Shown here: piece by piece, positions 145-52,274 of the stretch
Layout of the letters: every line of letters begins with the position of its first letter
How positions within the stretch are numbered: the first letter of the stretch is position 1
Assembly: GCA_016787485.1 (NCBI GenBank)
Contig: JAEUUL010000004.1
Coordinates: 1-64,000 of the forward strand
Direction of reading: 5' to 3'
Length of the DNA: 64,000 bases
Source of the DNA: Bacteroidota bacterium
Lineage (GTDB): Bacteria > Bacteroidota > Bacteroidia > NS11-12g > UBA955
The notes under the pieces: model-generated
Told to the model about the DNA's origin: nothing
Database searches by the model: none
Seen by the model: the letters and a program-made list of their open reading frames with translations, nothing else
Translations under genes and position numbers: made by a program

Positions 145-168
145 ACTCAACCCTTCAAAATTCGTGGG

Positions 169-202
169 TTTGTCTCTTATTGCCAAGCCCGCTGTAATTT
201 TG
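169..202 (+). promoter_or_regulatory. Bacteroidota-type promoter of hflX
   Basis: TTTG (169-172), a 22-bp spacer and TAATTTTG (195-202) match the Bacteroidota consensus TTTG-N17-23-TAnnTTTG. Transcription would begin about at the ATG at 209, so the message may be leaderless. The site argues against the upstream in-frame GTG at 164 as the start of hflX. Confidence 0.5.
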
Positions 203-208
203 CCCGAT

Positions 209-1393
209 ATGTGTCCGGGACCTCAGGAATTTTATTCTACCGCCAAAAAGCAGGAAAGAGCCGTTTTGGTGGGCATCGATCATCCGGCACAAAAAGGCCG
301 TACCCAGGAATTTCTGGATGAACTTGCAGCCCTGGTAGAAAGTGCTGGTGCCCTTCCGGTTCACCGTTTCTGGCAAAAACTGGAATACCCGCACCCCAGA
401 ACCTGCGTAGGCAGCGGAAAACTCTTGGAAATAGCCGGCTATGTCAAAGAAAATGAAATCGATCTGGTGGTCTTCGACGAGGAATTGTCTTCTTCGCAAA
501 TCCGCAACATAGAACGGGAAATGAATGAGGTGAAAATCCTGAGCCGCACCAACCTGATTCTCGACATCTTTGCCAAAAACGCCAAAACTGCCCAGGCCAA
601 AACCCAGGTGGAACTGGCCCAGAGTATTTTTCTGCTGCCCCGCCTGACCCGCATGTGGACCCACCTGAGCAAGCAAAAAGGGGGAATAGGTATGAAAGGA
701 CCGGGTGAAACCGAAATTGAAACCGATCGCCGTGCCCTGCGCGACCGCATCACCCTGCTCAAAGAACGTCTTTCACATATAGAAAAAATTGCACGGACCC
801 AGCGGGTAGCCCGCGAGGGAATGTACCGTGTAGCCCTGGTGGGATACACCAATGTGGGCAAAAGCACCCTCATGAACCTGCTTAGCAAGGCCGACGTGCT
901 GGTGGAAAACAAACTGTTTGCCACGCTGGATGCCACAGTACGCAAAATCGTGCTGCCGAACCCGGATCCCGAAAAAGAACCCATTCCCATTCTGCTGTCA
1001 GACACGGTGGGTTTTATACGCAAACTGCCCACGGCATTGGTAGAAAGTTTCAAAAGCACCCTGGCAGAAGCAACGGAGGCAGACCTGCTCATCCATGTGG
1101 TGGATGTAAGTAATCCCGGATTTGAGGAACAAATGCGTTCTGTAAAAGAAACTTTGCTCGAAATTGGTGCCGGTCAAAAACCTGAATTGATTGTGTTCAA
1201 CAAAACCGATGCATTCCGGGCATTACCCGAAGATTTTGGGGTTGGTTCTACCGGTCTCAGTATCGCCCAGTTTGAAAAAAGCTGGATAGCCCGGGAAAAT
1301 GCCCCGGCCGTATTTGTATCAGCTACGGAAAAAGACAACATACAAACCCTGAAACAGGCTCTGGTAAAGCAGTTGTTGTTATTAAGGAAATAG
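209..1393 (+). CDS. hflX: GTPase HflX
   Basis: HflX is a ribosome-associated GTPase that splits stalled or stress-inactivated 70S ribosomes. The N-terminal HflX domain has the characteristic CVGSGK segment and is followed by the glycine-rich KGGIGMKGPGETEIETDRR linker. The G domain carries G1 GYTNVGKST (residues 212-220 counted from 209), G3 DTVGF and G4 NKTD. Length (394 aa) is normal for the family. I chose ATG 209 because a good promoter ends at 202; an in-frame GTG at 164 would add 15 residues but lies upstream of that promoter and nearly touches the divergent gene. It converges on the T9SS cargo gene across a 53-bp gap. Long antisense frames here are shadows. Confidence 0.95.
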   Translation: MCPGPQEFYSTAKKQERAVLVGIDHPAQKGRTQEFLDELAALVESAGALPVHRFWQKLEYPHPRTCVGSGKLLEIAGYVKENEIDLVVFDEELSSSQIRNIEREMNEVKILSRTNLILDIFAKNAKTAQAKTQVELAQSIFLLPRLTRMWTHLSKQKGGIGMKGPGETEIETDRRALRDRITLLKERLSHIEKIARTQRVAREGMYRVALVGYTNVGKSTLMNLLSKADVLVENKLFATLDATVRKIVLPNPDPEKEPIPILLSDTVGFIRKLPTALVESFKSTLAEATEADLLIHVVDVSNPGFEEQMRSVKETLLEIGAGQKPELIVFNKTDAFRALPEDFGVGSTGLSIAQFEKSWIARENAPAVFVSATEKDNIQTLKQALVKQLLLLRK

Positions 1394-1446: not shown

Positions 1447-4400
1447 TTAACGCTTTGCCACTCTGCCAACTTTGACTCTATCCCCGACGGTTACCCGGTA
1501 TACGTATATTCCGTCCATCAGTTTATCAAGATCAACTTTTAGCTCATTAAGCCCTATTGTGCCTTCCTGTTTTTCACTTTGTACCAGATTACCTTTCATG
1601 TCATAGAGCTTTACTGCAACGGTTTCATTCTTCAGAAGTATGAAATTCACATGAAGTATTCTGTCCGTAGGATTGGGAAATACTGCAAAGGAGTCCGCAA
1701 ATACCCTTACTTTCACTTCGTTGTTTTCGGTCAGGCCATCATGGGTTGCACTGACTGTGAAGCTATTTAAACCAAAGAGCTTGTTATTAACTTTAAGGGT
1801 CAGTATGCCTGAATTAAGGGTGGCATTAATGCCTTTTGTCGAATTCACCATATGGATACTCATATCCCCTTTTAGCGAATCCGGGTCGGTGAAGAATGCA
1901 GATATAGGCAATGAAAAGGAATCCGAAGGGCCCATTTTCAACTCGAAAGCTTTCTTCACTGGGGCAAGGCGTTTGGCAATGGCAAAACTCTGTATTTCAG
2001 CCCGTGAGGAATCGAAGTCCAAGAGATTTATGGATAGTTTTTGAACATTCGGTTCATAGTCGCATATTCCGGTATCGCTAAAATCTAGTTTCATATACCG
2101 CTGATTGTCATAACACATAACCAAATAGGAACTGTCTCTATTAATGTGGTAAGGTTGATCCAAACATATCGCAACCCTTAAATCCGGTTTTTGTATAATA
2201 CTCAAGTTTCTAAATTCGAACTTTCTGGAAAGAGGAAATAATCCTTTATCAATAATAGAATCATCAAACTGTTTAATAGAAATAATGTTACTTGAAGAAT
2301 TGTCAATCTTTCTGACACTAATGTTTCTCCAGTAATTTATATTCCACGTATTATCAAATTGCATGAATACACTATCTGTTTTCGAGGAATATGATGTGGG
2401 CTCCATTTTGAGATCTATAAATTCCAATGTATCTATTTTCATAATTGTATCTTTATACCCCAAAATCGAGAATTTGCATTTTCTATTTTCCCTTAATACC
2501 CTAACTAAATTATCTACACTATTCAGTGTTTCATAATATATATCATCAACATAAATGTTTACTCCCTTTAAATAATCAGGTACCATAATATGAATTCTTC
2601 TGCTATAATAATTAAGTAATGTGTCAGGATAATAGTAAACTGTTTTATGCACAAATATAGAATCTGAAGCACCATTAATGCGCACCTTTAAGTCATTATA
2701 ACCAGTGTCCAAATTTATTGTAACAAAATCATCTAAGCTATTTAAAGGGATATATTTAATACTACTATCAATACGAACCTCACGGTCAAAGCTAATGGCA
2801 TTCTTTGCATGCAGTTCCATAGTTATAGATGGGTTAGATACAATTGGTCCGGTCTTATAAGTAATAAACACAGGATACTCAATTCCGATTGTAGGGTGGT
2901 CTGTGTGAAACATTGACACCTTAAGTTTCTTATTTTCGAGCATGTATTTCGTCAACACAACCTTTTGAATCTGCACGTTAGTTGCTATAAAGTAAAGGGT
3001 GTCTCCGACTTCTAAAATATTCATACCACCAATCTGAATATTGCCATTGTCATCCGTTTTTCCTAAATTGATATAAACACTATCTGAAGGTTTCCTTTGT
3101 ATAACCGCACAATTGGTCAGAACCGATTTATATGTTGAAATGACAATTGGATTGAAATCTGGGTAAGGACAAGAAGAAACTACTGTTGAATTACCCAAAA
3201 ATTTGACTATTTTTTCCAGATTTGTAATTGGTCGAGAGCAATCAAGCTTATAATGATATGGCGTATTCTGACTTAGGAAGTAATTCTTGTGTTCCTCGAA
3301 ATGTGTAAGTAGATGCTCGCCATGTTGATACAATTGTTTTACTATAGGCGAGTTCCCTGTTGAATTTTTCAAGTTAAGCAAATTACTCGACCAAATAGGT
3401 ACTACTCCATCATTCTCGGAATTTAGATAGGCTCTTACCTTTCCAATCAATACTCCATTATTGTAATCTGTTGTCCCAATTTCAGAACGAAATCCAGTTA
3501 AATTTAATACCTCGACATTTATCTTAAATGGCAAAAGCTTTAGGGTTTCTAAATTAGAAGAGCCAGAAGCCCTTAAATCCATAGTGCCAGGACATGAATT
3601 AATCAAAGACCAATTCACCAGCCAATTAGCAATTGGAGCTCCGTTATGCGGAGTTCCAAGAAAGACTACCTTCTTTATCAAACCCCGCAGTGAAAAGGAC
3701 CCAACTCCATAATACTTTGAATTGTCAAAGGAACGTGTATAATCAGACAGAAATGCACGAACATCAAGTCCTCCTTTACTGTGACAAATAAAGTTTACAT
3801 CCGTTGCTGATGAATTCTTGCCTAAGATAAGTTCAAGTGCCTTTCCTATATCATACCCATTTCTAGCAATTGAATTTGCATTACCCTGGGCAATATACCA
3901 TGCATTAAATCCTGATTTTTCAAGATACCCCATAACGGAAAAGGAACTTTCACAGTCAGATTTGGATGCTTCTATTAGTCCTAATTCTCTTAATTTGAAG
4001 CTATTACCCTCTATCTCATTGAAAATTCCGCCTATCGCTATAGCCAAATGATTGTTAATTGGGGAAGATGGAAATATTCTTCCGTATTTACACAGGGAAA
4101 AGGTGGCACTCTGAACAAATTCCTCATTAGACCAATAGTATAATTCAAAATCACCCGGCAGAACTGTTTCAATATTACTATTGTCATAATCGATGGTAAG
4201 AAATCCCGTTTTGCCAGAATAGGTTAAATCAGGCAAACGATTTATGTTCAAAATACTCTCTGGGACATCAGTAATATTTAATTTATTTAAATCACCTAAA
4301 TATCGGTAAGATACATTTCCAAATCGCTTAATGGTTATTCTGGTTACTGGTTTTAAATTATTATATGGAACAGGTATTTTTATAGATTCTCCTTTAACAT

Positions 4401-6180
4401 TGTGATAATACAGATTTTTTTTATTCCAATTTGATTCAATAATTTTAGTTTTCACATCGACATCACAGTAAGTCTGCGTTGCATAATCAATAATCTGATA
4501 TCCAACGTTACTTCCGTCTAATGGATAGTTCGGCATTAAACTATATGGCTGCACATAAAATTTAAATTTCCCTGATCCGCTTGATTGAGTCAATGTTATA
4601 CTGCTCTGGGTAATTGCTAGCACACCATTAACATATATATCAAGATTGATCTTGCTTCCTTTATTCATGCCAGAATAATTGAATGCTATCTCTCCCATTA
4701 AATCATCTCCTTCTCGCTGCCAAGGAGGAACTGTAGAATTGGCATCATCAATTACTATAGAAGGCCCAGAAAAAGTCTTAACCGTTCTGCAATTACTCGG
4801 ATCAGACTTACAGGCCCCAACCGCAACTACATAAAATGAATAGTCCGTATTCGGGTTCAGATTCTTCACATCAAGCGAAGTTTGAGACTGGGACACTGTT
4901 TGATAAAGTGAAGGCGCTGCGCAAGAGGTGCCAGTGGAAACATAGACTTCATAACCGTTTGTTGCAGTATTAACCGCACTCCAACTTAGAGTAACCTGTG
5001 ATGATGTTATTCCGGATGGGGAATAAAGTGAAGGAGCACCCGGTTTTGTGCAGGGTGTTTTGGTAGTTCCAACAGCGCAGTTGCTGGGGTCGGAAGTCCC
5101 GCCAGAATTAGACGCTTTAACTACAAAGTAATAGGTGGTACTCGAATTTAAACCATTAACGGTAGCATTGGTATTTGACGTGGTTATCCCGGTTGAGGTG
5201 AATGTATTACCACATGAACTGGCATTGTAGAAGATTTCGTAGGTTATACTGGAGCCAGAAACTGCAGACCACTGTAGTGTAGCAGATTTATCATCAATAG
5301 AGGTAATCTGTAAATTCGCAGGTGGAGAAGGCTTTGGCACCGTTGTGTTTGATAAAACAAAATTTCTATCATACAAATGTGTATTTGCCGTATATCTGTA
5401 GGAGTTCGGAGTTGAAGTATTATAACCTGAATAAGAACATGTTACATTTACATTGGAGCCTTGTGGAACCTTTAACTGATAATAACCACTGCTGGAGTAT
5501 GTGGTTCCAAGACTCCCTAAATCAACAAAAGCTCCGTTAATCGAGCCACCATAATTGCATTCTGATGCTGTTTTACAAACTCTCCCTGCAACAATGTAAT
5601 AATCAGATGTAACAGTATTTACACTCAGGTAACTACCGGTTGCTCCCCGACTCACCCATCCAGTCGATTGGCTGCAGTTGTTAGGCAAATACACCTCATA
5701 CCAGAGTGTTCCACTTACATTTACAGGTGCACTGCTGGTCAAAGCAACCAGTGTATTATTGGCAAAAGTAGCGTTTGATCCTGCTATTGTCACATTGGAG
5801 GATGTATTTCCTGCGCTTGGTCTGATGTTCAACTGTGCAGTGATAACAGTGGCATATGTGTTAACTGAATAAATATTGGTATAAAACTCGTTCACCGCCA
5901 TATATCCGTATGTGAGGCTTCCATTCGTATTCGGCAGACAAACCTTTATCCAATTATAAAATGTAGCGTCACTGCTATTTGAAACTATAGATTCCGCACA
6001 TATTCTTGCACCCGGTGCCAGAGTCGTCAGAACCGAACCACTGGAACTTGGTGAGGAACGAATATTCAGGTTAAAAGTATTCGCATTATAATAGACCTGC
6101 GGAACCTGGCCGGCATAGCTGTATGCAAACCTGAACAGTAGAACCACAATTCCAAGTGTTCTTAAGATATTTACTCTCAT
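1447..6180 (-). CDS. Large T9SS-exported protein with SH3-like, FN3 and lipase-like domains
   Basis: A 1577-residue exported protein. Visible in order: signal peptide (1 to about 23, ending SYAGQ); two bacterial SH3-like domains (about 28-105 and 108-190, each with an LNIR(S/P) start); two fibronectin type III domains (about 285-372 and 380-468, with CTKPGAPSL between); an alpha/beta-hydrolase-like region (about 705-960); a beta-rich stretch; and a T9SS type A sorting domain in the last 80 residues (FPNPT start, KLYDMKGNLV, GIYVYRV). The hydrolase region has a nucleophile elbow CHSKGG (S801), NDGVVP (D924) and HGEH (H953/H956), the layout of a lipase triad, so esterase or lipase activity on the cell surface is inferred. 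It is last in a three-gene operon, 17 bp after the upstream gene. Substrate unknown. Confidence 0.8.
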   Translation of the reverse strand: MRVNILRTLGIVVLLFRFAYSYAGQVPQVYYNANTFNLNIRSSPSSSGSVLTTLAPGARICAESIVSNSSDATFYNWIKVCLPNTNGSLTYGYMAVNEFYTNIYSVNTYATVITAQLNIRPSAGNTSSNVTIAGSNATFANNTLVALTSSAPVNVSGTLWYEVYLPNNCSQSTGWVSRGATGSYLSVNTVTSDYYIVAGRVCKTASECNYGGSINGAFVDLGSLGTTYSSSGYYQLKVPQGSNVNVTCSYSGYNTSTPNSYRYTANTHLYDRNFVLSNTTVPKPSPPANLQITSIDDKSATLQWSAVSGSSITYEIFYNASSCGNTFTSTGITTSNTNATVNGLNSSTTYYFVVKASNSGGTSDPSNCAVGTTKTPCTKPGAPSLYSPSGITSSQVTLSWSAVNTATNGYEVYVSTGTSCAAPSLYQTVSQSQTSLDVKNLNPNTDYSFYVVAVGACKSDPSNCRTVKTFSGPSIVIDDANSTVPPWQREGDDLMGEIAFNYSGMNKGSKINLDIYVNGVLAITQSSITLTQSSGSGKFKFYVQPYSLMPNYPLDGSNVGYQIIDYATQTYCDVDVKTKIIESNWNKKNLYYHNVKGESIKIPVPYNNLKPVTRITIKRFGNVSYRYLGDLNKLNITDVPESILNINRLPDLTYSGKTGFLTIDYDNSNIETVLPGDFELYYWSNEEFVQSATFSLCKYGRIFPSSPINNHLAIAIGGIFNEIEGNSFKLRELGLIEASKSDCESSFSVMGYLEKSGFNAWYIAQGNANSIARNGYDIGKALELILGKNSSATDVNFICHSKGGLDVRAFLSDYTRSFDNSKYYGVGSFSLRGLIKKVVFLGTPHNGAPIANWLVNWSLINSCPGTMDLRASGSSNLETLKLLPFKINVEVLNLTGFRSEIGTTDYNNGVLIGKVRAYLNSENDGVVPIWSSNLLNLKNSTGNSPIVKQLYQHGEHLLTHFEEHKNYFLSQNTPYHYKLDCSRPITNLEKIVKFLGNSTVVSSCPYPDFNPIVISTYKSVLTNCAVIQRKPSDSVYINLGKTDDNGNIQIGGMNILEVGDTLYFIATNVQIQKVVLTKYMLENKKLKVSMFHTDHPTIGIEYPVFITYKTGPIVSNPSITMELHAKNAISFDREVRIDSSIKYIPLNSLDDFVTINLDTGYNDLKVRINGASDSIFVHKTVYYYPDTLLNYYSRRIHIMVPDYLKGVNIYVDDIYYETLNSVDNLVRVLRENRKCKFSILGYKDTIMKIDTLEFIDLKMEPTSYSSKTDSVFMQFDNTWNINYWRNISVRKIDNSSSNIISIKQFDDSIIDKGLFPLSRKFEFRNLSIIQKPDLRVAICLDQPYHINRDSSYLVMCYDNQRYMKLDFSDTGICDYEPNVQKLSINLLDFDSSRAEIQSFAIAKRLAPVKKAFELKMGPSDSFSLPISAFFTDPDSLKGDMSIHMVNSTKGINATLNSGILTLKVNNKLFGLNSFTVSATHDGLTENNEVKVRVFADSFAVFPNPTDRILHVNFILLKNETVAVKLYDMKGNLVQSEKQEGTIGLNELKVDLDKLMDGIYVYRVTVGDRVKVGRVAKR

Positions 6181-6197
6181 ATCATTAGTGTTATACT

Positions 6198-9100
6198 TTA
6201 AAAAATCATTCGCAATGTTGCATTTCCTCCCCAGCCACCAGCTTTGAACTCCTCTCCGCTGAATTTCTTATAGCTGTGGTCATTGGTACGATACATAAGC
6301 TTATCATTGGGATTATATTCAATCTTCGTGTTCATATCCTCATTATTCAGATAGATCCCATTTGAATGGGATAATAAACGGGTCCAGTTACCAGATAAAC
6401 CAAGGTGGATATAATCTGTAATAGGAATATTAAATCCGAATGTGCCTCTTAAAAGAGTAGATTCATTCAGGACATATATTTTTGGATCCTGAATAAAACT
6501 ACCATTGGCATTAATCCGATTCCCAAACCCCGTCACTTTTTCCTGTAACAAGGTAAAATACCTTCTTGAAAACCACCCCACTGTTGACTGAAAATTGAAT
6601 TTCGTAGATCGCCCAATATTGAAACCCAAACCCAGACCTGTTTCAGACAATTTATACTTCCCCTCAACCCAATTGTATTGAAAATATATAGGAATATGTT
6701 CTGTAATTGACCACCCCAGATTTAAATTATAACAGAAAATGCGATTTTGTGCGTTTAATGCAGTTATCATCGAATCTTCAATACCCGGACTTGACTCAGT
6801 TTCGAACTGGTACCGGACCGTCATGTCAACCCGCGCCATTGGTAATAGATTGGCACCAAACTCCAAATAAAATGGATTTCTCATTTTCTTAGGTTGCCGT
6901 AACTTGGCTGTTGAAGGTTTCTCTACTGATTGTGTATAAACATTGTCAATTTCTAAGTGGGTAGTAGATTTAACCGAATTGTCGGTAGCCACATTGACCA
7001 CCTTCACGGGTGTAGAAAAGGAATAATTGGGAAACCAATAGTTAAGCGAGTGTTTAGGAACTATTGACTTAACTATTTCATTTTTGTACCAGAGTTCTAT
7101 TCTATGAACATAAGCCAACAATGGCCCTTTATTCGGAATGGGTAATATAGATATTTGCATCACCGGCTTTATATCGGTATACCCTATATACCCAGGATCA
7201 TCAAAATCACTCAGGTTTAGCACCTGAATTCCCTCTCCGTCGGTTGGGGAATATTTATAAATCCCCTCGTCCGTAGTATCCGACCGCTTATTTCCGTTAA
7301 AATCAAACTGCTGAACCCCCACAAAGCTCTGATAAATCACATCGCCCGTACCCCAATAATAATTTCTTGCATATTGCCTCGTATCGTAATCGTAACGAGA
7401 CTCCCACATATAATGAATAACTGGTACATGGTTGGCGTCAATTTTATATTCATTACTCGACTCTTCATAAACAAGTGGACTGTAATATTCAGTGCTGTAA
7501 TAAAGATTTATCGAGGACTTTTTCATAATGTCTAATTTGTAAGTATAACTAAAAGGATTCTGAGTTAAAAATTCCCTGTACTCAGCTAATCCTGCTTTAT
7601 ATATTTCCGTTTCTTTAATACCCACACTCCTCATATATTTAAGCTTTTCGGGCCGGAAATAGGTCATGAAGTCAATAATAAAATTACTGTTTTGGTCCTT
7701 AGAATCATCAAAATATACTTTATATTTCGCAGCAGCTATCAACTCGGGTGTTAGATTCTTTTCTGATAGAGGATATTCAATTTTAATTTGCTTTACGTTA
7801 TTGACTATATTGTTGGTAAAGGTCTCGTCAAAGCCCGGTTTTTCAATAGGTCCTGTAAATGAGATATCGGTATCGGGCTGAGCTTCGTACTGCATACTAG
7901 GTTGATTATCTGCCTTGTATACAAATGGATATGAATTTGTAATATATTCAGACGAAACTACAGTTTCTGATTCAACGCTGAAACCACATTGATTGGAATA
8001 TCTTCTTGGATTTATCAGATTGACTCTACCTGAAGTATTGTATCTGTTTTCTTCAACTATCCTGAGTGTATAGTTGAAAATAGTTTGACCTTCAGCTGTA
8101 CCTTTTGATTTATAAAACTTTCCTATCTTTTTTATGGTACCGATATAGTCATCCATAGAACCATTGCCAAAGTTATTGCTATAATAATATATTGCTATCG
8201 GTACATGCCTGTCCTCAAAACTTCCGGACAAGATCATGTTACTTATTTCTGAAGCAGACAATACACTCACCACTTCCTGAAAATACTTGAGTTCAAAGTT
8301 ATGAGCATAGCTTGTACTAAGTCTTTTAAAAGTATTTGATGTTTTCTTCAAACTGATATTCAAAGGAAGTTGATTCTGCATAAAACTATCATAAATCCGT
8401 GTTTTTACATAATCCCAGTTATTTGGATAAAAATGTGTAGCCAACAGATTCAATGTGTCACAATCCTTTATTGACCACCGATGGGCAGATACTATCTGGT
8501 CAAAAACAAAATTATTGATTGAGGGAACCATAAACTGCCGGTAGAATTGCTTGAGACCTTTTAAATCACTGCCGTTCTTCGTATACAAGATGTAATATTG
8601 CTCAAGGCATTTTATCCCTGCTGCGTTAGAACCCAATGATCTGTAACACTCCATGCATCCCAATGGATCCGTCATATTTGAAGTGACAATATTAACGTAT
8701 TTTGCTAATGCATTGCTGCTCATAGGGCTTTTGGGATATCTGCGATAAAACTCAATCAACTTTGCGGTATCTGAACCGTTCACAGTAAACATATTAAACA
8801 TTTTATTATTCGCAGCCTGGATTAATCCTGAATTTGGATTCTCCCTGATGAACTTTTCCAATGCATCAATAGTGCTAAGTTTATTCAGTCTTAAGCTGTC
8901 AGCCAATGCATTAGCCCTGTATGAATATGGACTATTTGGATTATTACGCGCATAATCGTATAGGGAATCATAGGAATTATACTTTTGAGAAATAGTAAAT
9001 CCTGTCAGATATATGGATTCCTGGATTTTCACGAGGTATTTTGTGACCCCTCCAAAACGATTTTTCAATTTACCAAGACAAACGATATCTTTCGCCAGAT

Positions 9101-9683
9101 TACAAATACGCAAGTGCCTTTCGACAATACTGTCTTTTACCATTTCGGAGTAAATAGAATTCGGATATGCTATAAGAAATTTCTCCAGGGCTTCAGGATT
9201 TTGCTTTTGCATTGCCTGATCAACCAATATTGAGTCCCTCTTGTTTATACAATACCTCAAATGATCTCCATCTTTACTAACTTTGATATATTGGTCCAGG
9301 GAATTTATACGCAACGTGCGGATTGAAGCGTAAAAATATAAAGAGTCCAGTATTCTAAAGTTAGATACAATATCCGTTGCCTGTAGTTTATAATCACGAA
9401 GTTGGTCAAGTTGACCTTCATAAAGGGAAACTGCACGAAAAGCAGCCAGATATCCTTCAGAGAAGTTTTCATCTCCAACAGTTCCAATTGTTTTTACCCT
9501 AGAAAAACCGTAAAGAGCCGCTGCATTATTGGAATCCTTGCGAAGGGCTTTCGTAAATAATGCTTCGGCATTTTGATATTTCTGACGATGAAGAAACTTG
9601 AGGCCTCTCTTAATCGGGTCAGCATGCAACTCACTCAAAAACAACAGAATTGCAAGCAGTGCATGAATTTTCGACAATTTCAT
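6198..9683 (-). CDS. Exported TPR-like protein with C-terminal outer-membrane barrel, function unknown
   Basis: A 1161-residue protein with a signal peptide (MKLSKIHALLAILLFLSELHA). The first part (about 22-75) resembles a tetratricopeptide unit (FLHRQKYQNAEALFTKAL), followed by alpha-helical repeats to about residue 450 in which N-P-N-S-x-Y phrases recur. A beta-rich middle follows. The last 220 residues look like an outer-membrane beta-barrel: alternating aromatic strands, NPFYLEFGANLLPMARVDM, and a terminal Phe (TLRMIF), a usual signal for outer-membrane insertion. Its start overlaps the stop of the WG-repeat gene by 4 bp, so translation is probably coupled. I do not recognise the family. 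From its place between a membrane sensor-like protein and a T9SS cargo I infer a cell-envelope role. Confidence 0.7.
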   Translation of the reverse strand: MKLSKIHALLAILLFLSELHADPIKRGLKFLHRQKYQNAEALFTKALRKDSNNAAALYGFSRVKTIGTVGDENFSEGYLAAFRAVSLYEGQLDQLRDYKLQATDIVSNFRILDSLYFYASIRTLRINSLDQYIKVSKDGDHLRYCINKRDSILVDQAMQKQNPEALEKFLIAYPNSIYSEMVKDSIVERHLRICNLAKDIVCLGKLKNRFGGVTKYLVKIQESIYLTGFTISQKYNSYDSLYDYARNNPNSPYSYRANALADSLRLNKLSTIDALEKFIRENPNSGLIQAANNKMFNMFTVNGSDTAKLIEFYRRYPKSPMSSNALAKYVNIVTSNMTDPLGCMECYRSLGSNAAGIKCLEQYYILYTKNGSDLKGLKQFYRQFMVPSINNFVFDQIVSAHRWSIKDCDTLNLLATHFYPNNWDYVKTRIYDSFMQNQLPLNISLKKTSNTFKRLSTSYAHNFELKYFQEVVSVLSASEISNMILSGSFEDRHVPIAIYYYSNNFGNGSMDDYIGTIKKIGKFYKSKGTAEGQTIFNYTLRIVEENRYNTSGRVNLINPRRYSNQCGFSVESETVVSSEYITNSYPFVYKADNQPSMQYEAQPDTDISFTGPIEKPGFDETFTNNIVNNVKQIKIEYPLSEKNLTPELIAAAKYKVYFDDSKDQNSNFIIDFMTYFRPEKLKYMRSVGIKETEIYKAGLAEYREFLTQNPFSYTYKLDIMKKSSINLYYSTEYYSPLVYEESSNEYKIDANHVPVIHYMWESRYDYDTRQYARNYYWGTGDVIYQSFVGVQQFDFNGNKRSDTTDEGIYKYSPTDGEGIQVLNLSDFDDPGYIGYTDIKPVMQISILPIPNKGPLLAYVHRIELWYKNEIVKSIVPKHSLNYWFPNYSFSTPVKVVNVATDNSVKSTTHLEIDNVYTQSVEKPSTAKLRQPKKMRNPFYLEFGANLLPMARVDMTVRYQFETESSPGIEDSMITALNAQNRIFCYNLNLGWSITEHIPIYFQYNWVEGKYKLSETGLGLGFNIGRSTKFNFQSTVGWFSRRYFTLLQEKVTGFGNRINANGSFIQDPKIYVLNESTLLRGTFGFNIPITDYIHLGLSGNWTRLLSHSNGIYLNNEDMNTKIEYNPNDKLMYRTNDHSYKKFSGEEFKAGGWGGNATLRMIF

Positions 9684-11878
9684 ATTGATGCGAAATCGAT
9701 GTCATAATAAATAATGATCCGACTCCTTCTCAGCGAAAGCTGAATTCCCGCTGCACTGGGATGCTTGAAAGATCGTGTATCTTCATCTTGAATTGCAGTG
9801 CCCGGAGAGTTCTGTAGAACAAAGCCTGCATTTTCTGTCTTTCTTATCAGTAATTGATAAATATCCTTCACTTTTTCTGAAGCTTTCCCTGAAAATTCAA
9901 AAACATACGCTAATTTCTCAAGATGGCTTTTCTCGGCTGTATTTAATTCCCATCCCACAACAGTCTCTGTTCTCTCTGACCTCATAACCTGAACCAGATC
10001 GCCATAGTCATCTCTTTCATATCCAGGCACCTGAACAACTTTCATCTCTTTTCTTGGTACTTTTAGGTCATCTGAGTATTTTAACTCAATTCTCCCATTT
10101 GTATATTTATTGTATTTCAGATTATCCAAACTTATCTGTGACGAATAGCTGAACAATGGGTAATTATCTGGCACTTTAGTCTCAGCTTTGAATTCTCCCA
10201 TTGCTTTTGCCGATGTATCCTGATCCTTATTTTGCTTTTGAATTAAGTCCTTAATAATATTATACAATGCGGCTGGTGATGTGCTTTTCTCAATTCCATT
10301 TATCCCAGTCCCTTGTACAGACGAACATATGGAATTAACAATAGCCTCCGCTTGAAAATAATCACTAATCTGGATATGATCATCAAGCCAGTAAGAACTG
10401 GCATATTGGTTTTCAGTTTGTACTACCAACCAATGAAATACAGTATTATCATAGCCTAACTCCTCGATATTGGTTTTGGACAGCGACTTACCCTTCGAAT
10501 CAATAACATCATATCTTTCGTTTTCCTTAACAAATGCACATTTGTCAATAAATGGAAATGCCTTGTCGTACTGTGGGCGAATAACTTCCGAACCGTCCAG
10601 GTTTACATATCCGTATTTTGAATCACTTTCTTCTGAAGATGCATCGTTTATAAGAACCAGTCCATTAAAGTACAAGGCAAACTTATACTTAGGCCGAATC
10701 ACTTCCTCTCCCTTTTTATTCATTATTCCTTGAAGACTTCCATCAGAAAATGTGCAATATCCGTCCACAAATGGTCCGACAAAAGTGTATTTGTCTCTTG
10801 CTTTAATAACCTTTTCTCCCTCCTGATTAATAAAGCCCCATTGCTTATGCTCCTTGTCATCTGAATATGCGATATACCCTTCTGAAGAAGATTTGTACTC
10901 AACCCCGCTTTGCAGTTTAATGACAACCGATCCTTTTCTGTTTATGAAACCATTCTCGAATTCATTCGTGTTTTTACTCCGTTTGGATACCAGTGCAAGT
11001 CCATCTGAAAATGGTTCAGCCCTGTCATAAATTGCGCTGATTACAACAGCGCCTGATTTGTCAATGAAGCCATACTTTCCTTCACTGTTCCTGAAGCGTG
11101 CAAGCCCATCTTTAAAATTACCAGCTTCTTCAACTTCTTTTCCTTCAAGAGTTTTAACCTCAAATACAATTTTGATATTCTCATCCACATAGGCGACTGG
11201 CCCATTTTCAGGCACTACCGCTGCCAGTCCCTCACTATGCGGCGAAGTAGATTTAAACGCATCACCTACCTGTACCGGTTTGGGTTCAATCTTATAGTAC
11301 TCGAATTTCCCTTTGCTGTTTTTTACCCTTGTATAACCGGCTACAACAGGTGAGGGTTGCTCAATCCATTCGTTGGTTACAACAACCTTCCCATCAAGAC
11401 TGATTAAACCCCATCTGTCCTCTTTGTGCTCCTTAAACGGAATATGCGTCACCCCATCAAGCTGCGTAATGCTTCCACTATTGTTGCGAATAAAAAAATA
11501 CCCAAATGCCACCGCCGAGAAAAGAACCAGAAACAATAAACCAAATGTCACCTTCATCCATACCCGCCCTTTTCGCTTGGGCGTTGTCTTTGACTTATGA
11601 TTCTTGTCATCTCCATTTGCCTGAGGCTGCTGTGGTTTGGCAGCTTGATTCATCACGGGTTGACCCAAAACTGTCGGGTTTTTAAATTCAGCAGTCTCTT
11701 GGTTGACCTGCAATACTCGTGAATCCTGTTTTTCCACCTCTACAGGAGACTCAGCAGCGGGTGGGTTGACAATTGGTGCTGGTATTTCGGGGAATTTATT
11801 CCCGCATGACATACAGAATACGGCATCAAATAAATTAGAATGGCCGCATTTAGGGCAGAATTTTGAATTTTGTTCCAT
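9680..11878 (-). CDS. Zinc-ribbon, single-TM, WG-repeat protein
   Basis: A 732-residue protein. The N-terminus is a zinc ribbon with two CxxC pairs (FCPKCGH and FCMSCGN, about residues 8-28), then a Pro/Gln-rich linker, one transmembrane helix at about residues 105-130 (VTFGLLFLVLFSAVAFGYFF), then WG repeats up to about residue 500 (WGLISLDGKVVV, YGFIDKSGAVVI, WGFINQEGEKVI, YGYVNLDGSEVI). The C-terminal 230 residues are unassigned. The likely topology is zinc ribbon in the cytoplasm and WG repeats in the periplasm. It is first in an operon with the two large exported proteins downstream; the next ATG overlaps its stop. WG repeats are usually binding scaffolds; the ligand is unknown. No TAnnTTTG promoter was seen upstream. 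Confidence 0.8.
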   Translation of the reverse strand: MEQNSKFCPKCGHSNLFDAVFCMSCGNKFPEIPAPIVNPPAAESPVEVEKQDSRVLQVNQETAEFKNPTVLGQPVMNQAAKPQQPQANGDDKNHKSKTTPKRKGRVWMKVTFGLLFLVLFSAVAFGYFFIRNNSGSITQLDGVTHIPFKEHKEDRWGLISLDGKVVVTNEWIEQPSPVVAGYTRVKNSKGKFEYYKIEPKPVQVGDAFKSTSPHSEGLAAVVPENGPVAYVDENIKIVFEVKTLEGKEVEEAGNFKDGLARFRNSEGKYGFIDKSGAVVISAIYDRAEPFSDGLALVSKRSKNTNEFENGFINRKGSVVIKLQSGVEYKSSSEGYIAYSDDKEHKQWGFINQEGEKVIKARDKYTFVGPFVDGYCTFSDGSLQGIMNKKGEEVIRPKYKFALYFNGLVLINDASSEESDSKYGYVNLDGSEVIRPQYDKAFPFIDKCAFVKENERYDVIDSKGKSLSKTNIEELGYDNTVFHWLVVQTENQYASSYWLDDHIQISDYFQAEAIVNSICSSVQGTGINGIEKSTSPAALYNIIKDLIQKQNKDQDTSAKAMGEFKAETKVPDNYPLFSYSSQISLDNLKYNKYTNGRIELKYSDDLKVPRKEMKVVQVPGYERDDYGDLVQVMRSERTETVVGWELNTAEKSHLEKLAYVFEFSGKASEKVKDIYQLLIRKTENAGFVLQNSPGTAIQDEDTRSFKHPSAAGIQLSLRRSRIIIYYDIDFASI

Positions 11879-12106
11879 GACGTCTTATGTGGTCTGTTTC
11901 ATTGTGCCTAATATAATAATGCGTTGATATTTGAATTATTCCTGCACTTCACTGTTGAAAGGGTTCTTAGTCATGCTTAAGTTTCAACATATTAAACTTT
12001 TGTGATTCAATGATAATTGACAGAACCGACAAATCCAAATCGAATCCTCAGAAGTCACTTTGGATTTTGTTCAATATCTGTAATCAGCGCCATGTTGCCT
12101 CCAAAC

Positions 12107-12135
12107 AAAAAAAGCCACCCCTTAATGGAATGGCT
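12107..12135 (-). terminator. Rho-independent terminator of the DUF2795 gene
   Basis: Read on the minus strand: AGCCA, an interrupted stem with GG/CC, TGGCT, then seven T. It lies about 20 bp after the stop at 12156. Confidence 0.6.
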
Positions 12136-12155
12136 CATTTTTCTGAAAAGCTTTT

Positions 12156-12377
12156 TTACAACTCGTCCTCGTTGAAGAAATAATCTTCATCCGTAGGATA
12201 GTCACTCCATATTTCCTCAATGCTCTCATAAGGCTCGCCATCGTCTTCCAACTCCTGCAGGTTCTCTATTACCTCAAGCGGGGCGCCCGAACGAATGCCA
12301 TAATCAATCAGTTCGTCTTTTGTCGCAGGCCATGGAGCATCATCCAGGTAGCTCACAAGTTCCAGTGTCCAGTACAT
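12156..12377 (-). CDS. DUF2795 family protein
   Basis: A 73-residue acidic protein starting MYWTLELVSYLDDAPWPATK, a conserved opening of small Bacteroidota DUF2795 proteins. The C-terminus is very acidic (DEDYFFNEDEL). An upstream in-frame ATG at 12410 would add 11 residues but lies at or before the promoter -7 box (12400-12407), so ATG 12377 is preferred. It stands alone with its own promoter and terminator. Function is unknown; family members are small soluble proteins, in some genomes fused to or near DNA- or RNA-linked proteins. Confidence 0.85.
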   Translation of the reverse strand: MYWTLELVSYLDDAPWPATKDELIDYGIRSGAPLEVIENLQELEDDGEPYESIEEIWSDYPTDEDYFFNEDEL

Positions 12378-12399
12378 AGTGCTAACTTTTAATTTTCCG

Positions 12400-12430
12400 C
12401 GAAAATACACTTTTCAGCCACTCGTGTCAA
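12400..12430 (-). promoter_or_regulatory. Promoter of the DUF2795 gene
   Basis: On the minus strand TTG (12430-12428), a 20-bp spacer and TATTTTCG (12407-12400) match the Bacteroidota consensus with one change in the -7 box. It supports the start at 12377. Confidence 0.45.
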
Positions 12431-46333: not shown

Positions 46334-47091
46334 ATTCGGATATCCATGCCAGCAGCATTCAGATTCTGTTTTAATTCCTGAATGCCAAAGGTATTGTAGT
46401 GCAGTATTGAGGCAAACGCAACGGCGTCAGGGTTAATGCGGTCCGCAAGTGCCAGCACATGATCCGGCTGTCCTGCACCACCGCTGAAAATAACAGGAAC
46501 ACTTACGGCGTTATAAACCTGCTCGGCCAATTCCAGATCAAAGCCCTTTTTTGTCCCCTCCATATCTACAGAAGTAAGCAGGATTTCACCCGCACCCAGC
46601 CTTTCCACTTCTTTTGCCCACTCTACTACATTCAATCCGGTTTCTTCCCTTCCATTGTCTGTATAAGCCTCCCACCAGCTGCCTTTGTTCTTCGCTTCAA
46701 TAGAAGCAACCACTGCCTGAGAACCGTACATCTCAGCAGCCCTGGTTATTAAAGTGGGTTCTTTTATGGCTTGCGTATTGATTGAAATTTTATCTGCACC
46801 GGATTTAAGCGCAAGATCAATATCCTCTACGCTTCTGAGACCACCACCTATGGTAATGGGAATAAATACTTCGCGGCAGGCCTGTTCTATGATATGGAAT
46901 AAATTGTTTCGTCCGTACAAACTGGCCACTGCATCCATAAACAGAATTTCATCTACACCCTGCTGGTAATATTTACGTGCCAATTCAACAGGGTTGCCTA
47001 CTTTACGCAATCCTTCGAGGTGAATTCCCTTGATGACAAATTCATTTTTTACGTCAATTCTTGCAATAATTCTTGTGCGCGAATGTCTCAT
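46330..47091 (-). CDS. HisF-like cyclase paralogue
   Basis: A 253-residue TIM barrel related to HisF. The start ATG 47091 overlaps the neuC stop (ATGA). The first catalytic Asp of HisF is kept (IARIDVK), but the second, in the motif V-A-I-D-A-K, is Glu here (VASIEAK), and SIDRDG is SVDMEG. The glycine-rich phosphate loop FSGGAG remains. With HisH it would form an ammonia tunnel to the WbpG-like enzyme. The changed catalytic residue supports a role other than imidazole-glycerol-phosphate formation. An upstream frame to 47142 is less likely because it would overlap neuC more. Confidence 0.88.
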   Translation of the reverse strand: MRHSRTRIIARIDVKNEFVIKGIHLEGLRKVGNPVELARKYYQQGVDEILFMDAVASLYGRNNLFHIIEQACREVFIPITIGGGLRSVEDIDLALKSGADKISINTQAIKEPTLITRAAEMYGSQAVVASIEAKNKGSWWEAYTDNGREETGLNVVEWAKEVERLGAGEILLTSVDMEGTKKGFDLELAEQVYNAVSVPVIFSGGAGQPDHVLALADRINPDAVAFASILHYNTFGIQELKQNLNAAGMDIRM

Positions 47092-48230
47092 GCCTGTGCT
47101 CCCCGATAATCCATAAAATATTTTTGTTTGGGAATTTCCCAAAACCGGTTGTCTCTCAAAGCAGAGATAAATAACTCGTCACTCTTTCCCTCACCAAACA
47201 GCTGGGCAGGCTCCATTCTGACATCGCTTAGCTGCTGAATGGCCTGCAGGATTTCATCCTTTCCGTACCCTGTATTCACAATCTGCTCGAGCAAGCTGCG
47301 GTTCATTTGCCTTGTACCAATATTTACAGTGGGTATTCCGTAATACGGAGCTTCCCGGATTCCTGCACTGCTGTTGCCCACAATCATTTCCGCATGTTTC
47401 AGCAATACCAGAAAATATTCAAACCTTAAACTCGGGAACAGGATAAAATCAGGGTTGTTGTTGAACTCTTTAAATCGTTGAAGAATAAACTCTGAACCCA
47501 TATCATTGTTCGGGTATACAACCACGAACTGTTTTCCGGATTCAATCAGCGCCCGAACCAGGTTACCGGCCTGGTCAAAAACCTGATCGTACTCTGTGGT
47601 TACCGGATGAAACATCACGATGCCATATTTATCAAATGGAATTTCATAATGTTCCTTTACTGTTTCCAGAGTGGGCAACCGGTTGCTCAGCATAACATCC
47701 ACATCCGGTGAGCCGATTACAAAAATGGATTCGTGCTTTTCTCCCATTTGTTGCAACCGTTTGCTGGCTATTTCATTTGCCACAAAATGAACATGGCTCA
47801 TTTTGCTTACTGCATGCCTCACAAGTTCATCTATGGTGCCGGAAACCTCGCCACCTTCCACATGCGCCACAAGAATGTTATTCAGTGCGCCTACAATTGC
47901 CCCGGCCAGGGCTTCTACGCGGTCGCCGTGAATCACCACCAGGTCTGGCATCAATTCCTTTACATATCCTGAAAAACCTTCAATGGTTTTTGCCAGTATG
48001 GAATCCATGCTGTCGTAATCATGATGATTGATATAACTGTAAATGTTCGGGTAGCCGCATTTCTGTATCTCATCCACGGTGCGGCCATACCGTGAATTCA
48101 TATGCATTCCCGTTGCAAAAATGTGCGCTTCGAATCCGGGTTCATCCAAGACAACCTCTATCAATGATTTAAGTTTCCCAAAATCTGCCCGTGTTCCCGT
48201 AAGAAAAACAATCCGTCTTGGTTCACTCAT
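47088..48230 (-). CDS. neuC: UDP-N-acetylglucosamine 2-epimerase (hydrolysing), NeuC/SiaA type
   Basis: A 380-residue enzyme that converts UDP-GlcNAc to ManNAc and UDP, the first step of sialic acid synthesis. It has FLTGTRADFGKLK, FATGMHM, IHGDRVEALAGA, HVEGGEVSGTIDE, FHPVTTEYD and GNSSAGIREAP, which follow the NeuC1/SiaA pattern of Campylobacter and Neisseria rather than the LegG type. An upstream promoter box and direct repeats suggest it starts its own transcript with the HisF, HisH and WbpG genes. No 4,6-dehydratase is nearby, consistent with a route through ManNAc. Confidence 0.92.
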   Translation of the reverse strand: MSEPRRIVFLTGTRADFGKLKSLIEVVLDEPGFEAHIFATGMHMNSRYGRTVDEIQKCGYPNIYSYINHHDYDSMDSILAKTIEGFSGYVKELMPDLVVIHGDRVEALAGAIVGALNNILVAHVEGGEVSGTIDELVRHAVSKMSHVHFVANEIASKRLQQMGEKHESIFVIGSPDVDVMLSNRLPTLETVKEHYEIPFDKYGIVMFHPVTTEYDQVFDQAGNLVRALIESGKQFVVVYPNNDMGSEFILQRFKEFNNNPDFILFPSLRFEYFLVLLKHAEMIVGNSSAGIREAPYYGIPTVNIGTRQMNRSLLEQIVNTGYGKDEILQAIQQLSDVRMEPAQLFGEGKSDELFISALRDNRFWEIPKQKYFMDYRGAQA

Positions 48231-48261
48231 GCGTTGCCTGAATAATCCGCTTTACAAATGG

Positions 48262-48269
48262 CAAAAATA
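48262..48269 (-). promoter_or_regulatory. -7 box of the neuC-hisF-hisH-wbpG transcript
   Basis: TATTTTTG on the minus strand, exact TAnnTTTG, 31 nt before the neuC ATG in the 86-bp gap after neuB. A TTG exists at 48298-48296 but the spacer is 26 bp. It suggests an internal promoter within the long run. Confidence 0.45.
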
Positions 48270-48277
48270 CACCCGAA

Positions 48278-48297
48278 TGACATTCAGTTGACATTCA
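48278..48297. repeat. Tandem TGACATTCA repeats, one helical turn apart
   Basis: TGACATTCA occurs at 48278-48286 and again at 48289-48297, an 11-bp period, just upstream of the neuC -7 box. Direct repeats on the same helix face are typical of activator or repressor sites. No regulator gene is nearby. Confidence 0.4.
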
Positions 48298-48316
48298 ATG
48301 GTTAAATTATTTGTTT

Positions 48317-49363
48317 TCAATGTTTTAGGATATGTACATAAGAAATTTGGGTATCTGCAGGGATAAATTCAACTGCCCGCTTACCCAAAACAGTTTCGTA
48401 TTCTTCTGCAGGAATTTCCCCTGTACCCGGTCGCTTTACCCAGATATTGTCTGTGCTGAAGGCCTCACCCGCCGCGATATCGCGGATACTTACCACCGTT
48501 GCAAAAGCAAACTGTATGGTGGGTGTTTCTTCTTCCACAGGTCCCTTTTCGCCTCCTCTTTCCAGTTTTAGCATTTTACTGCCTTCAATCAATTCCTTCA
48601 TGGCCTGTGTATCCATAGAGCAAACGATATCCGGACCCGGCCGGTTCATATGGTCTGTGAAATGCCTCTCAAGTATGGACGCACCCAATGCCACAGCGCC
48701 CAGACATGCCAGATTGTTTGTGGTATGATCGGACAATCCCACCACAGCAGCCGGAAAGTGTTTCTCCAATTCCTGCATAGCTCCTAACCGTACCAGATGC
48801 GGAGGGGTGGGATAGATATTCGTACAATGCAATAGTGCATAAGGTACCTTTGCATCTCTGAATATCTGAACCGCTTTTTCAATGCTCCGGATTGTATTCA
48901 TGCCCGTGCTGAGAATAATGGGTTTGCCAAAGCCGGCTATATGTTTCAGCAGTGGGTAGTTGTTGCATTCACCGGAACCAATTTTATAGGCCGGGATATC
49001 AAATTTTCTGAGTCTTTCCGATGCAGCCCTTGAGAAAGGTGTGCTGATGAAAATCATCCCTTTTGATTGCACATAGCGCATCAGTTCATACTCGTCTGTC
49101 TCGGACAATGCGCAGCGTTCCATGATTTCGTAAATGGAAACATCGGCATTTCCGGGAATCGTTTTTTTCGCTTCTCCGGCCATTTCATCCCATACAATAT
49201 GGGTCTGGTGCTTGATGATTTCAGCTCCGGCTTTCTGTGCAGCATCCACCATTTCTATGGCCGTTTGAAGGGAGCCTTCATGGTTAATGCCTATTTCTGC
49301 AATAACCAGAGGGTCGTAATCATACCCGATTCTCCGACCGGCAATTTCAAAACTTGGTTTCAT
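48317..49363 (-). CDS. neuB: N-acetylneuraminate synthase family protein (NeuB)
   Basis: A 348-residue TIM-barrel synthase that condenses ManNAc (or a ManNAc analogue) with phosphoenolpyruvate to a nonulosonic acid. Motifs are [40 protein letters not shown] and VGLSDHT; the C-terminus carries the SAF (antifreeze-like) domain ([18 protein letters not shown]). Start ATG abuts the neuA stop. With a SiaA-type neuC, plain Neu5Ac is the expected product, but the substrate could already be altered. Confidence 0.92.
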
Positions 49364-50050
49364 TTATTTTTTATAATGTTCGGCCACAGCACGGGCCAGA
49401 ATTAAATCAAAGGGGGTGTCTATGTCTATGAGGCTCTGTTCTCCCATCACGAGAAGCTCGCTGTTGTCATCAAAAAATTGTTTTGTCTTTTGATAAAATG
49501 GAACGGATACACCATAAAATGCACCGTTGTTAAAATAAATATCGGGATACTCCTGCCGGCGCAATTCTTTAAATTCAGGCATTAAATAATTTGTTTTGTT
49601 CTGTGCATCTTTGTACAAATACTCTGCAGGATGGTGCATTACCGGACAAACGCCCAAAACGGATTTTGCACCATTTTTCAAAAGAGAAACACCCCGTTCC
49701 ATTTCCTCCACCCTCCGGAAAGGAGATGTGGGCTGAAGTAAAACAATATACTCAGGCAATCCGGATTCCTTTTCCAGATACTGCAACAAATGATCCACCA
49801 CTTCTGCATGGGTGGCAGTATCGGAACACAATTCCGCCGGTCTTTTGAAAGGTACTTCCACCCGCGGAAAATCAGATGCCAGATCTATGGCCGCATCCAT
49901 ATCCGTACTTAGAATCACGCGGTCAAATGCCGTTGTGGCTGAAGCTGTGGCCAACGAATACGCTAACAGAGGCATACCGCCCACATCAATCATATTCTTA
50001 CCCGGCAATCCTTTGGAATTCGCACGGGCTGTAATTATGGCCACTACCAT
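49364..50050 (-). CDS. neuA: CMP-acylneuraminate cytidylyltransferase (NeuA)
   Basis: A 228-residue nucleotidyltransferase that activates a nonulosonic acid with CTP. The opening IITARANSKGLPGKN, LLAYSLATA, LLQPTSPFR and the C-terminal FDLILARA are typical of the acylneuraminate (NeuA/LegF) group and not of KdsB. The kdnA stop and neuA start share one base (TGATG), so the two are translationally coupled. This coupling links the Kdn-type amination step directly to CMP activation. Confidence 0.92.
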   Translation of the reverse strand: MVVAIITARANSKGLPGKNMIDVGGMPLLAYSLATASATTAFDRVILSTDMDAAIDLASDFPRVEVPFKRPAELCSDTATHAEVVDHLLQYLEKESGLPEYIVLLQPTSPFRRVEEMERGVSLLKNGAKSVLGVCPVMHHPAEYLYKDAQNKTNYLMPEFKELRRQEYPDIYFNNGAFYGVSVPFYQKTKQFFDDNSELLVMGEQSLIDIDTPFDLILARAVAEHYKK

Positions 50051-51216: not shown

Positions 51217-51220
51217 ATGT

Positions 51221-52273: not shown

Positions 52274-52274
52274 A

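What the first reader, a model, noticed from the sequence alone, without database searches (positions are those of the whole stretch)
1447..11878. Three-gene envelope operon: zinc-ribbon/WG-repeat membrane protein, TPR/barrel protein, T9SS lipase-like cargo
The gene set spans the whole envelope: inner-membrane with a cytoplasmic zinc ribbon, a probable outer-membrane barrel with a repeat domain, and a surface-exported enzyme. The 4-bp and 17-bp spacing indicates joint expression. It could be a sensing and export unit or a contact/antagonism system. I know no described unit of this form.
Basis: partly seen in the sequence, partly recalled or inferred. Interest (0 to 1): 0.65.

Follow-up and report, generated by a model that had tools for sequence, protein, structure and literature searches.

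The report
Split TPR–propeller envelope operon, secreted lipase
Three genes in a Bacteroidota genome form one likely transcription unit in which two halves of a protein that relatives make as a single periplasmic chain (a helical TPR domain and a WG beta-propeller) sit in separate proteins, predicted to be tied to the outer and inner membrane, next to a surface-exported lipase; this suggests, but does not prove, a complex that bridges the two membranes.

Summary
The three genes, their order, the 4-bp overlap and the 17-bp gap are real. Gene 1 has a zinc ribbon, one TM helix, a WG-repeat domain predicted to fold as a beta-propeller, and an orphan C-terminal domain. Gene 2 has a signal peptide, a TPR-like alpha-solenoid (aa 23-547), an orphan beta-rich middle, and a C-terminus compatible with a small barrel (not shown). 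Gene 3 has a signal peptide, SH3/fn3 domains, a PGAP1-like lipase domain and a type A T9SS sorting tail; the genome has SprA.

New: the TPR domain of gene 2 belongs to a family (HMM E 7.5e-27 with gene 2 left out of the model) that in nearly all relatives is fused in one chain to about 11 WG repeats. One profile of that fusion family aligns by its first half to gene 2 and by its second half to gene 1. Fused elsewhere and adjacent here is a Rosetta-stone argument that products 1 and 2 touch, here from opposite membranes. In 20 of 63 relatives' loci the fusion gene is coupled to an inner-membrane TonB-like gene.

The trio occurs in no other genome searched, so the lipase's role rests on co-transcription alone. 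New variant of a known kind; function inferred.

The parts
9680..11878 (-). Gene 1 (WG), 732 aa: zinc ribbon, TM helix, WG-repeat beta-propeller, orphan C-terminal domain
   Evidence: ORF; PF14903 E 1.2e-39, Zn_Ribbon_1 sub-threshold; AlphaFold model
11804..11857 (-). Zinc ribbon, aa 8-25 (CPKC...CMSC)
11483..11566 (-). Single TM helix, aa 105-132, preceded by a basic stretch (KSKTTPKRKGR): N-terminus predicted cytoplasmic
   Evidence: hydropathy 2.4 at aa 112-130; helix 105-132 in model
10475..11446 (-). WG-repeat domain, aa 145-468, predicted beta-propeller, periplasmic
   Evidence: aligns to the second half of the TPR-WG fusion profile, E 2.4e-24
9683..10456 (-). Orphan C-terminal domain of gene 1, aa 475-732
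   Evidence: no Pfam match; no homolog of aa 478-732 in the class sample nor of aa 475-732 in the phylum sample; not TonB-like by hhalign
6198..9683 (-). Gene 2 (BAR), 1161 aa: signal peptide, TPR alpha-solenoid, beta-rich middle, putative C-terminal barrel
8043..9617 (-). TPR-like alpha-solenoid, aa 23-547; aa 2-324 homologous to the TPR half of TPR-WG fusion proteins
   Evidence: HMM without BAR: E 7.5e-27, best shuffle 0.68; hhalign prob 99.4; all-helical model to aa 547, pLDDT mostly 80-97 over aa 1-310 and lower beyond; TPR folds in PDB
6897..8042 (-). Orphan middle region, aa 548-929, rich in amphipathic strands
   Evidence: no Pfam match; strand count 16 vs 10.6 in shuffles
6201..6896 (-). 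C-terminal region, aa 930-1161, putative small outer-membrane barrel ending in Phe
   Evidence: strand count 13 vs 7.6 in shuffles, 6/500 reach it; not modelled: inference
1447..6180 (-). Gene 3 (LIP), 1577 aa: signal peptide, SH3_3, two fn3, lipase domain, T9SS type A tail
3001..4113 (-). Alpha/beta-hydrolase (lipase-like) domain, aa 690-1060; candidate Ser801, Asp924, and His953 or His956
   Evidence: motifs; remote PGAP1-type relatives
1453..1683 (-). T9SS type A C-terminal sorting domain, aa 1500-1576
   Evidence: TIGR04183 E 2.2e-10, PF18962; SprA in genome
12112..12136 (-). Terminator-like hairpin upstream, probable 5' limit of the unit; no Bacteroidota-type promoter pattern found in 11879-12155

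Best explanation
A lineage-specific envelope operon that carries a split version of the Bacteroidota TPR-WG periplasmic protein. Gene 1 is anchored in the inner membrane with its zinc ribbon in the cytoplasm and its WG beta-propeller in the periplasm. Gene 2 is exported and its TPR solenoid lies in the periplasm, probably held at the outer membrane by its C-terminal part. The propeller and the solenoid, which relatives carry in one chain, most likely bind each other and so bridge the two membranes. Gene 3 is a lipase-like enzyme sent to the cell surface by T9SS; the bridge most likely serves its display, regulation or the envelope region where it acts. Shown: gene order and spacing, domain identities, homology of the TPR domain, fusion in relatives, T9SS tail. 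Inferred: single transcript, barrel, topology of gene 1, TPR-WG contact, membrane bridging, any role towards the lipase.
For: ORFs and gaps. TPR family link with BAR excluded from the model, E 7.5e-27. Nearly all relatives holding the domain carry about 11 WG repeats in the same roughly 710-aa secreted chain. One fusion profile aligns BAR 1-326 to columns 4-293 and WG 209-492 to columns 396-657, with no overlap. Chance that a given gene has a WG gene beside it is about 0.2-0.7% for 3-11 WG genes in this genome. WG region modelled as a propeller, TPR region as a solenoid. In 20 of 63 relatives' loci the fusion gene is directly followed, mostly overlapping or within 11 bp, by a protein with a TonB-like C-terminus and, where the start is clear, an N-terminal TM helix, so the module is tied to the inner membrane there too. 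T9SS tail and SprA.
Against: The trio is found in no other genome. WG repeats are a generic module: other WG proteins in the order score higher against the fusion profile than gene 1 does, so gene 1's propeller is not shown to derive from a fusion protein. One TPR-domain relative lacks WG repeats altogether (362 aa, L136). The barrel is unproven. No interaction model of the two proteins was possible.
Confidence: 0.45

Rival explanations
1. Genes 1 and 2 form the envelope bridge, but the lipase is an independent T9SS-secreted nutrient enzyme that merely shares the transcript.
For: No homology or fusion ties the lipase to the other two; its remote relatives whose surroundings were read lie in loci without TPR or WG genes.
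Against: 17-bp gap with no terminator.
Confidence: 0.28
2. Transmembrane sensing unit: the WG propeller senses an envelope state, reported by the gene 2 TPR domain, and passes it to the cytoplasm through the zinc ribbon.
For: Zinc ribbon, TM helix and periplasmic propeller in one chain.
Against: No kinase, sigma or DNA-binding partner in the operon; zinc ribbons of this kind are common and often only structural (own knowledge).
Confidence: 0.13
3. Antagonism or immunity unit: the surface lipase attacks neighbouring cells and gene 1 or gene 2 protects the producer.
For: A lipase-like secreted enzyme next to envelope proteins.
Against: No toxin-delivery domain or polymorphic-toxin features; no Pfam, NCBIfam or PADLOC match of that kind; no variable copies of the set elsewhere.
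Confidence: 0.06
4. Chance neighbours with unrelated functions.
For: The set is unique to one genome.
Against: Overlapping start and stop of genes 1 and 2; TPR and WG domains fused in relatives.
Confidence: 0.08

Closest known systems
TPR-WG fusion proteins of Flavobacteriales/Crocinitomicaceae (about 710 aa; only the WG repeats are recognised by Pfam; no function found in the papers searched)
   Same: TPR half homologous to gene 2 aa 1-326; WG half matches gene 1 aa 209-492
   Different: One secreted chain with no TM anchor, zinc ribbon or barrel; here split over two proteins with extra membrane parts
PorE (PG1058) of the T9SS
   Same: Periplasmic TPR plus beta-propeller at the outer membrane; third gene of a three-gene operon (PMC5053529)
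   Different: PorE is one outer-membrane lipoprotein with WD40-type propeller, CRD and OmpA_C peptidoglycan-binding domains (PMC5053529, PMC7192894); genes 1 and 2 match none of these Pfam families
BamB and BamD of the BAM complex
   Same: Periplasmic propeller and TPR protein working at an outer-membrane barrel (own knowledge); BamB is among the Foldseek matches of gene 1
   Different: Bam parts are lipoproteins and no BamA-like (POTRA/Omp85) domain was found here
PGAP1-like/lipase-type alpha/beta hydrolases with T9SS tail
   Same: HS-x-GG, GTPH-x-G motifs; a 665-aa relative (L120) has both PGAP1 and the T9SS tail
   Different: Gene 3 has a Lys in the nucleophile motif (HSKGG), SH3 and fn3 domains at its N-terminus and a long C-terminal region; identity to the relatives is about 30-40% over about 70-100 aa only

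Membership tests
TPR-WG fusion family | N-terminal family-specific TPR domain | tested here: met
   Gene 2: E 7.5e-27 whole domain, 5.8e-8 for the first 125 columns alone
TPR-WG fusion family | WG repeats in the same chain | tested here: not met
   Gene 2 has no WG repeats; they are in gene 1
T9SS type A cargo | C-terminal sorting domain plus signal peptide, host with T9SS | tested here: met
   TIGR04183 above cut-off, N-terminal hydrophobic stretch, SprA in genome
PGAP1-like alpha/beta hydrolase | Pfam match above cut-off | tested here: not met
   Only sub-threshold matches of related families
PGAP1-like alpha/beta hydrolase | Nucleophile Ser motif, GTPHxG, acid and His in order | tested here: met
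   HSKGG 800, GTPHNG 842, NDGVVP 923, HGEH 953
PorE-like T9SS scaffold | OmpA_C peptidoglycan-binding domain and CRD with TPR and propeller in one chain | tested here: not met
   Absent from the Pfam scan of genes 1 and 2 at E up to 1
BAM-like complex | BamA/Omp85 (POTRA plus barrel) | tested here: not met
   No such Pfam match in gene 2
BamB-type propeller | BamB fold relationship | tested here: inconclusive
   BamB chains among Foldseek matches, but many propellers match equally; a shared fold shows no membership
Outer-membrane beta-barrel | Membrane barrel at the C-terminus | tested here: inconclusive
   Strand pattern above shuffles; no model and no family match

The most novel reading that the evidence does not exclude
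The operon encodes a two-protein bridge between the inner and outer membranes, made by splitting a fused TPR-propeller protein so that each half gained its own membrane anchor, and the bridge controls display of the T9SS lipase. It would represent a class of envelope couplers whose single-chain form is widespread in Flavobacteriales with a TonB-like partner.
Probability: 0.2. Interest if true: 0.75.

Novelty: new variant of a known kind. Interest (0 to 1): 0.45.

Why it matters
WG-repeat proteins are common in Bacteroidota (99 of 108 genomes of this order match the fusion-family profile, nearly always through its WG half), yet no experimental function turned up in the papers searched. A case where TPR and WG sit in separate, differently anchored proteins gives a concrete and testable partner pair and a predicted place of contact, and the TonB-like gene coupled to the fusion form in relatives points the same way. 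If right, it would give WG propellers a role as docking pieces between the two membranes.

Tried and rejected
Co-occurrence search of the three genes: no other genome holds the set; plasmids: no match for gene 2; a genome-contig scan with gene 2 alone found nothing. The class search with full-length gene 1 gave no answer. Solved structures by sequence: nothing useful for any of the three. The idea that the gene 1 C-terminal domain is TonB-like, as in the relatives' partner, was tested by hhalign and not supported; nor is the gene 2 middle region like that partner. AlphaFold could not model gene 2 beyond aa 547 with any confidence, since no homologs exist there. Bacteroidota promoter pattern: none in 11879-12155, and hits in the window are at chance level. 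Defence families: only one sub-convincing match (PDC-M12A, E 0.0023, on the orphan domain of gene 1). Papers on WG repeats: no functional study found; a WG protein of Pseudomonas aeruginosa is mentioned only as RsmA-regulated (PMC8855297).
Full report
Observation. Three ORFs lie head to tail on the minus strand: gene 1 at 11878..9680 (732 aa), gene 2 at 9683..6198 (1161 aa), gene 3 at 6180..1447 (1577 aa). Genes 1 and 2 overlap by ATGA and genes 2 and 3 are 17 bp apart. A terminator-like hairpin stands just upstream (12136-12112) and none in the gaps, though such hairpins are no commoner in the region than in shuffles. The downstream neighbour is a convergent HflX-like gene (164..1393, +; name from its sequence, own knowledge). 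One transcript is therefore likely, though not shown.

Gene 1. Zinc ribbon CPKC...CMSC, one TM helix at about aa 105-132 preceded by basic residues, and WG repeats (PF14903 E 1.2e-39). By the positive-inside rule (own knowledge) the N-terminus is cytoplasmic and the rest periplasmic. AlphaFold with 15 WG relatives gives a repeat domain at aa 145-468, pLDDT mostly 65-95. Foldseek's best matches are designed propellers (6tji, E 1.2e-9; 6tjh) and BamB among others, and VIA-align gives Z 15 over about 320 residues (rmsd about 5) with propellers such as the nine-bladed one of eIF3b. The WG domain is therefore read as a beta-propeller; a shared fold shows no function. Aa 478-732 have no relative in 395 class genomes, and aa 475-732 none in 395 phylum genomes.

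Gene 2. Signal peptide-like N-terminus without a lipoprotein Cys. AlphaFold with 31 relatives gives an all-helical solenoid to aa 547 (pLDDT mostly 80-97 over aa 1-310), and nothing usable beyond. Foldseek finds TPR superhelices. The rest has no Pfam match and no homolog in the order (108 genomes), the class sample or the phylum sample. The last 232 residues hold more amphipathic strand windows than shuffled copies (13 vs 7.6; 6 of 500 shuffles reach it) and end in Phe, which fits a small outer-membrane barrel without proving one.

Gene 3. Signal peptide-like N-terminus, SH3_3 (sub-threshold), two fn3, T9SS type A tail (TIGR04183 E 2.2e-10). The lipase-like domain has HSKGG, GTPHNG, NDGVVP and HGEH in the order expected of alpha/beta hydrolases; Pfam matches are sub-threshold, and its remote relatives include proteins that match PGAP1, one also with the T9SS tail. 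The genome holds SprA, so T9SS export is plausible.

The main new result. The gene 2 TPR domain belongs to a family. In the class sample 31 other genomes match it, most through the same kind of protein: about 710 aa, signal peptide, TPR-like domain, then WG repeats. A model built from relatives without gene 2 finds gene 2 at E 7.5e-27, against 0.68 for the best of 500 shuffles. A scan of genome contigs gave 63 named loci, largely Flavobacteriales including Crocinitomicaceae and Fluviicola, and in these the TPR domain sits in one chain with WG repeats, 10 or 11 in most complete proteins; the exception among them is cut off by a contig end (L079). In the host's own order there is a fusion in G059 (862 aa, L149), a 975-aa protein with a divergent C-terminus in G039 (L135) and a TPR-only 362-aa protein in G107 (L136). 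The same fusion profile aligns with gene 2 through its first half (E 5.1e-21) and with gene 1 through its second half (E 2.4e-24). With 3 to 11 WG genes in this genome, the chance that a given gene has one beside it is about 0.2-0.7%. This is a Rosetta-stone argument for contact between products 1 and 2.

Caution. WG repeats are generic. Several WG proteins of the order score better against the fusion profile than gene 1 does, so the propeller of gene 1 is not shown to descend from a fusion protein, only to be of the same kind. The 63 loci were found through the TPR domain, not through WG repeats, so the fusion is not a product of the search; but a search with this domain finds the family in which the domain is best conserved, and other architectures may be missed.

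Context in relatives. In 20 of 63 named loci the fusion gene is directly followed on the same strand by a protein of about 260 aa with a TonB-like C-terminus (TIGR01352 E 1e-5 to 1e-4, just below cut-off) and, where the start is clear, an N-terminal TM helix; the start mostly overlaps the fusion gene's stop or lies within 11 bp. That partner is absent here, and the gene 1 orphan domain does not resemble it. Both arrangements tie a TPR/WG module to the inner membrane.

Mechanism. Most likely the gene 1 propeller, held at the inner membrane, docks on the gene 2 solenoid, probably held at the outer membrane, and the lipase is exported by T9SS under the same control. The nearest working analogy is PorE, a periplasmic outer-membrane lipoprotein of the T9SS with TPR and propeller proposed as a scaffold (PMC5053529; PMC7192894), but defining PorE domains are missing here.

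Limits. No interaction was modelled or tested. The trio is unique to one genome in everything searched, so conservation cannot yet support it. The lipase's place in the unit is the weakest link.

Noticed in passing
L065:11084-11863 and 19 other loci: TPR-WG fusion gene coupled to a small TonB-like gene, with an N-terminal TM helix where the start is clear, in 20 of 63 relatives' loci; no description of the pair was looked for in the literature beyond the WG searches.
   Followed up: partly
window 12156-12410 (-): 84-aa DUF2795 protein upstream of the unit, separated by a terminator-like hairpin.
   Followed up: no
window 47088-54635 (-): UDP-GlcNAc 2-epimerase, NeuB and two DegT/DnrJ aminotransferases: a nonulosonic-acid (sialic, legionaminic or pseudaminic acid type) surface-glycan cluster, with glycosyltransferase and asparagine-synthase-like genes nearby.
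   Followed up: no
window 55361-57610 (-): 749-aa ORF in the glycan region with no Pfam match at E 1e-5.
   Followed up: no
L115:1903-5259 (-), G000:C13: Second WG protein of the host, 1119 aa, with WG repeats spread over most of its length.
   Followed up: no
L135:10154-13078 (+): 975-aa TPR-family protein in the host's family with a divergent, possibly WG-like C-terminal half that the WG model does not detect.
   Followed up: partly
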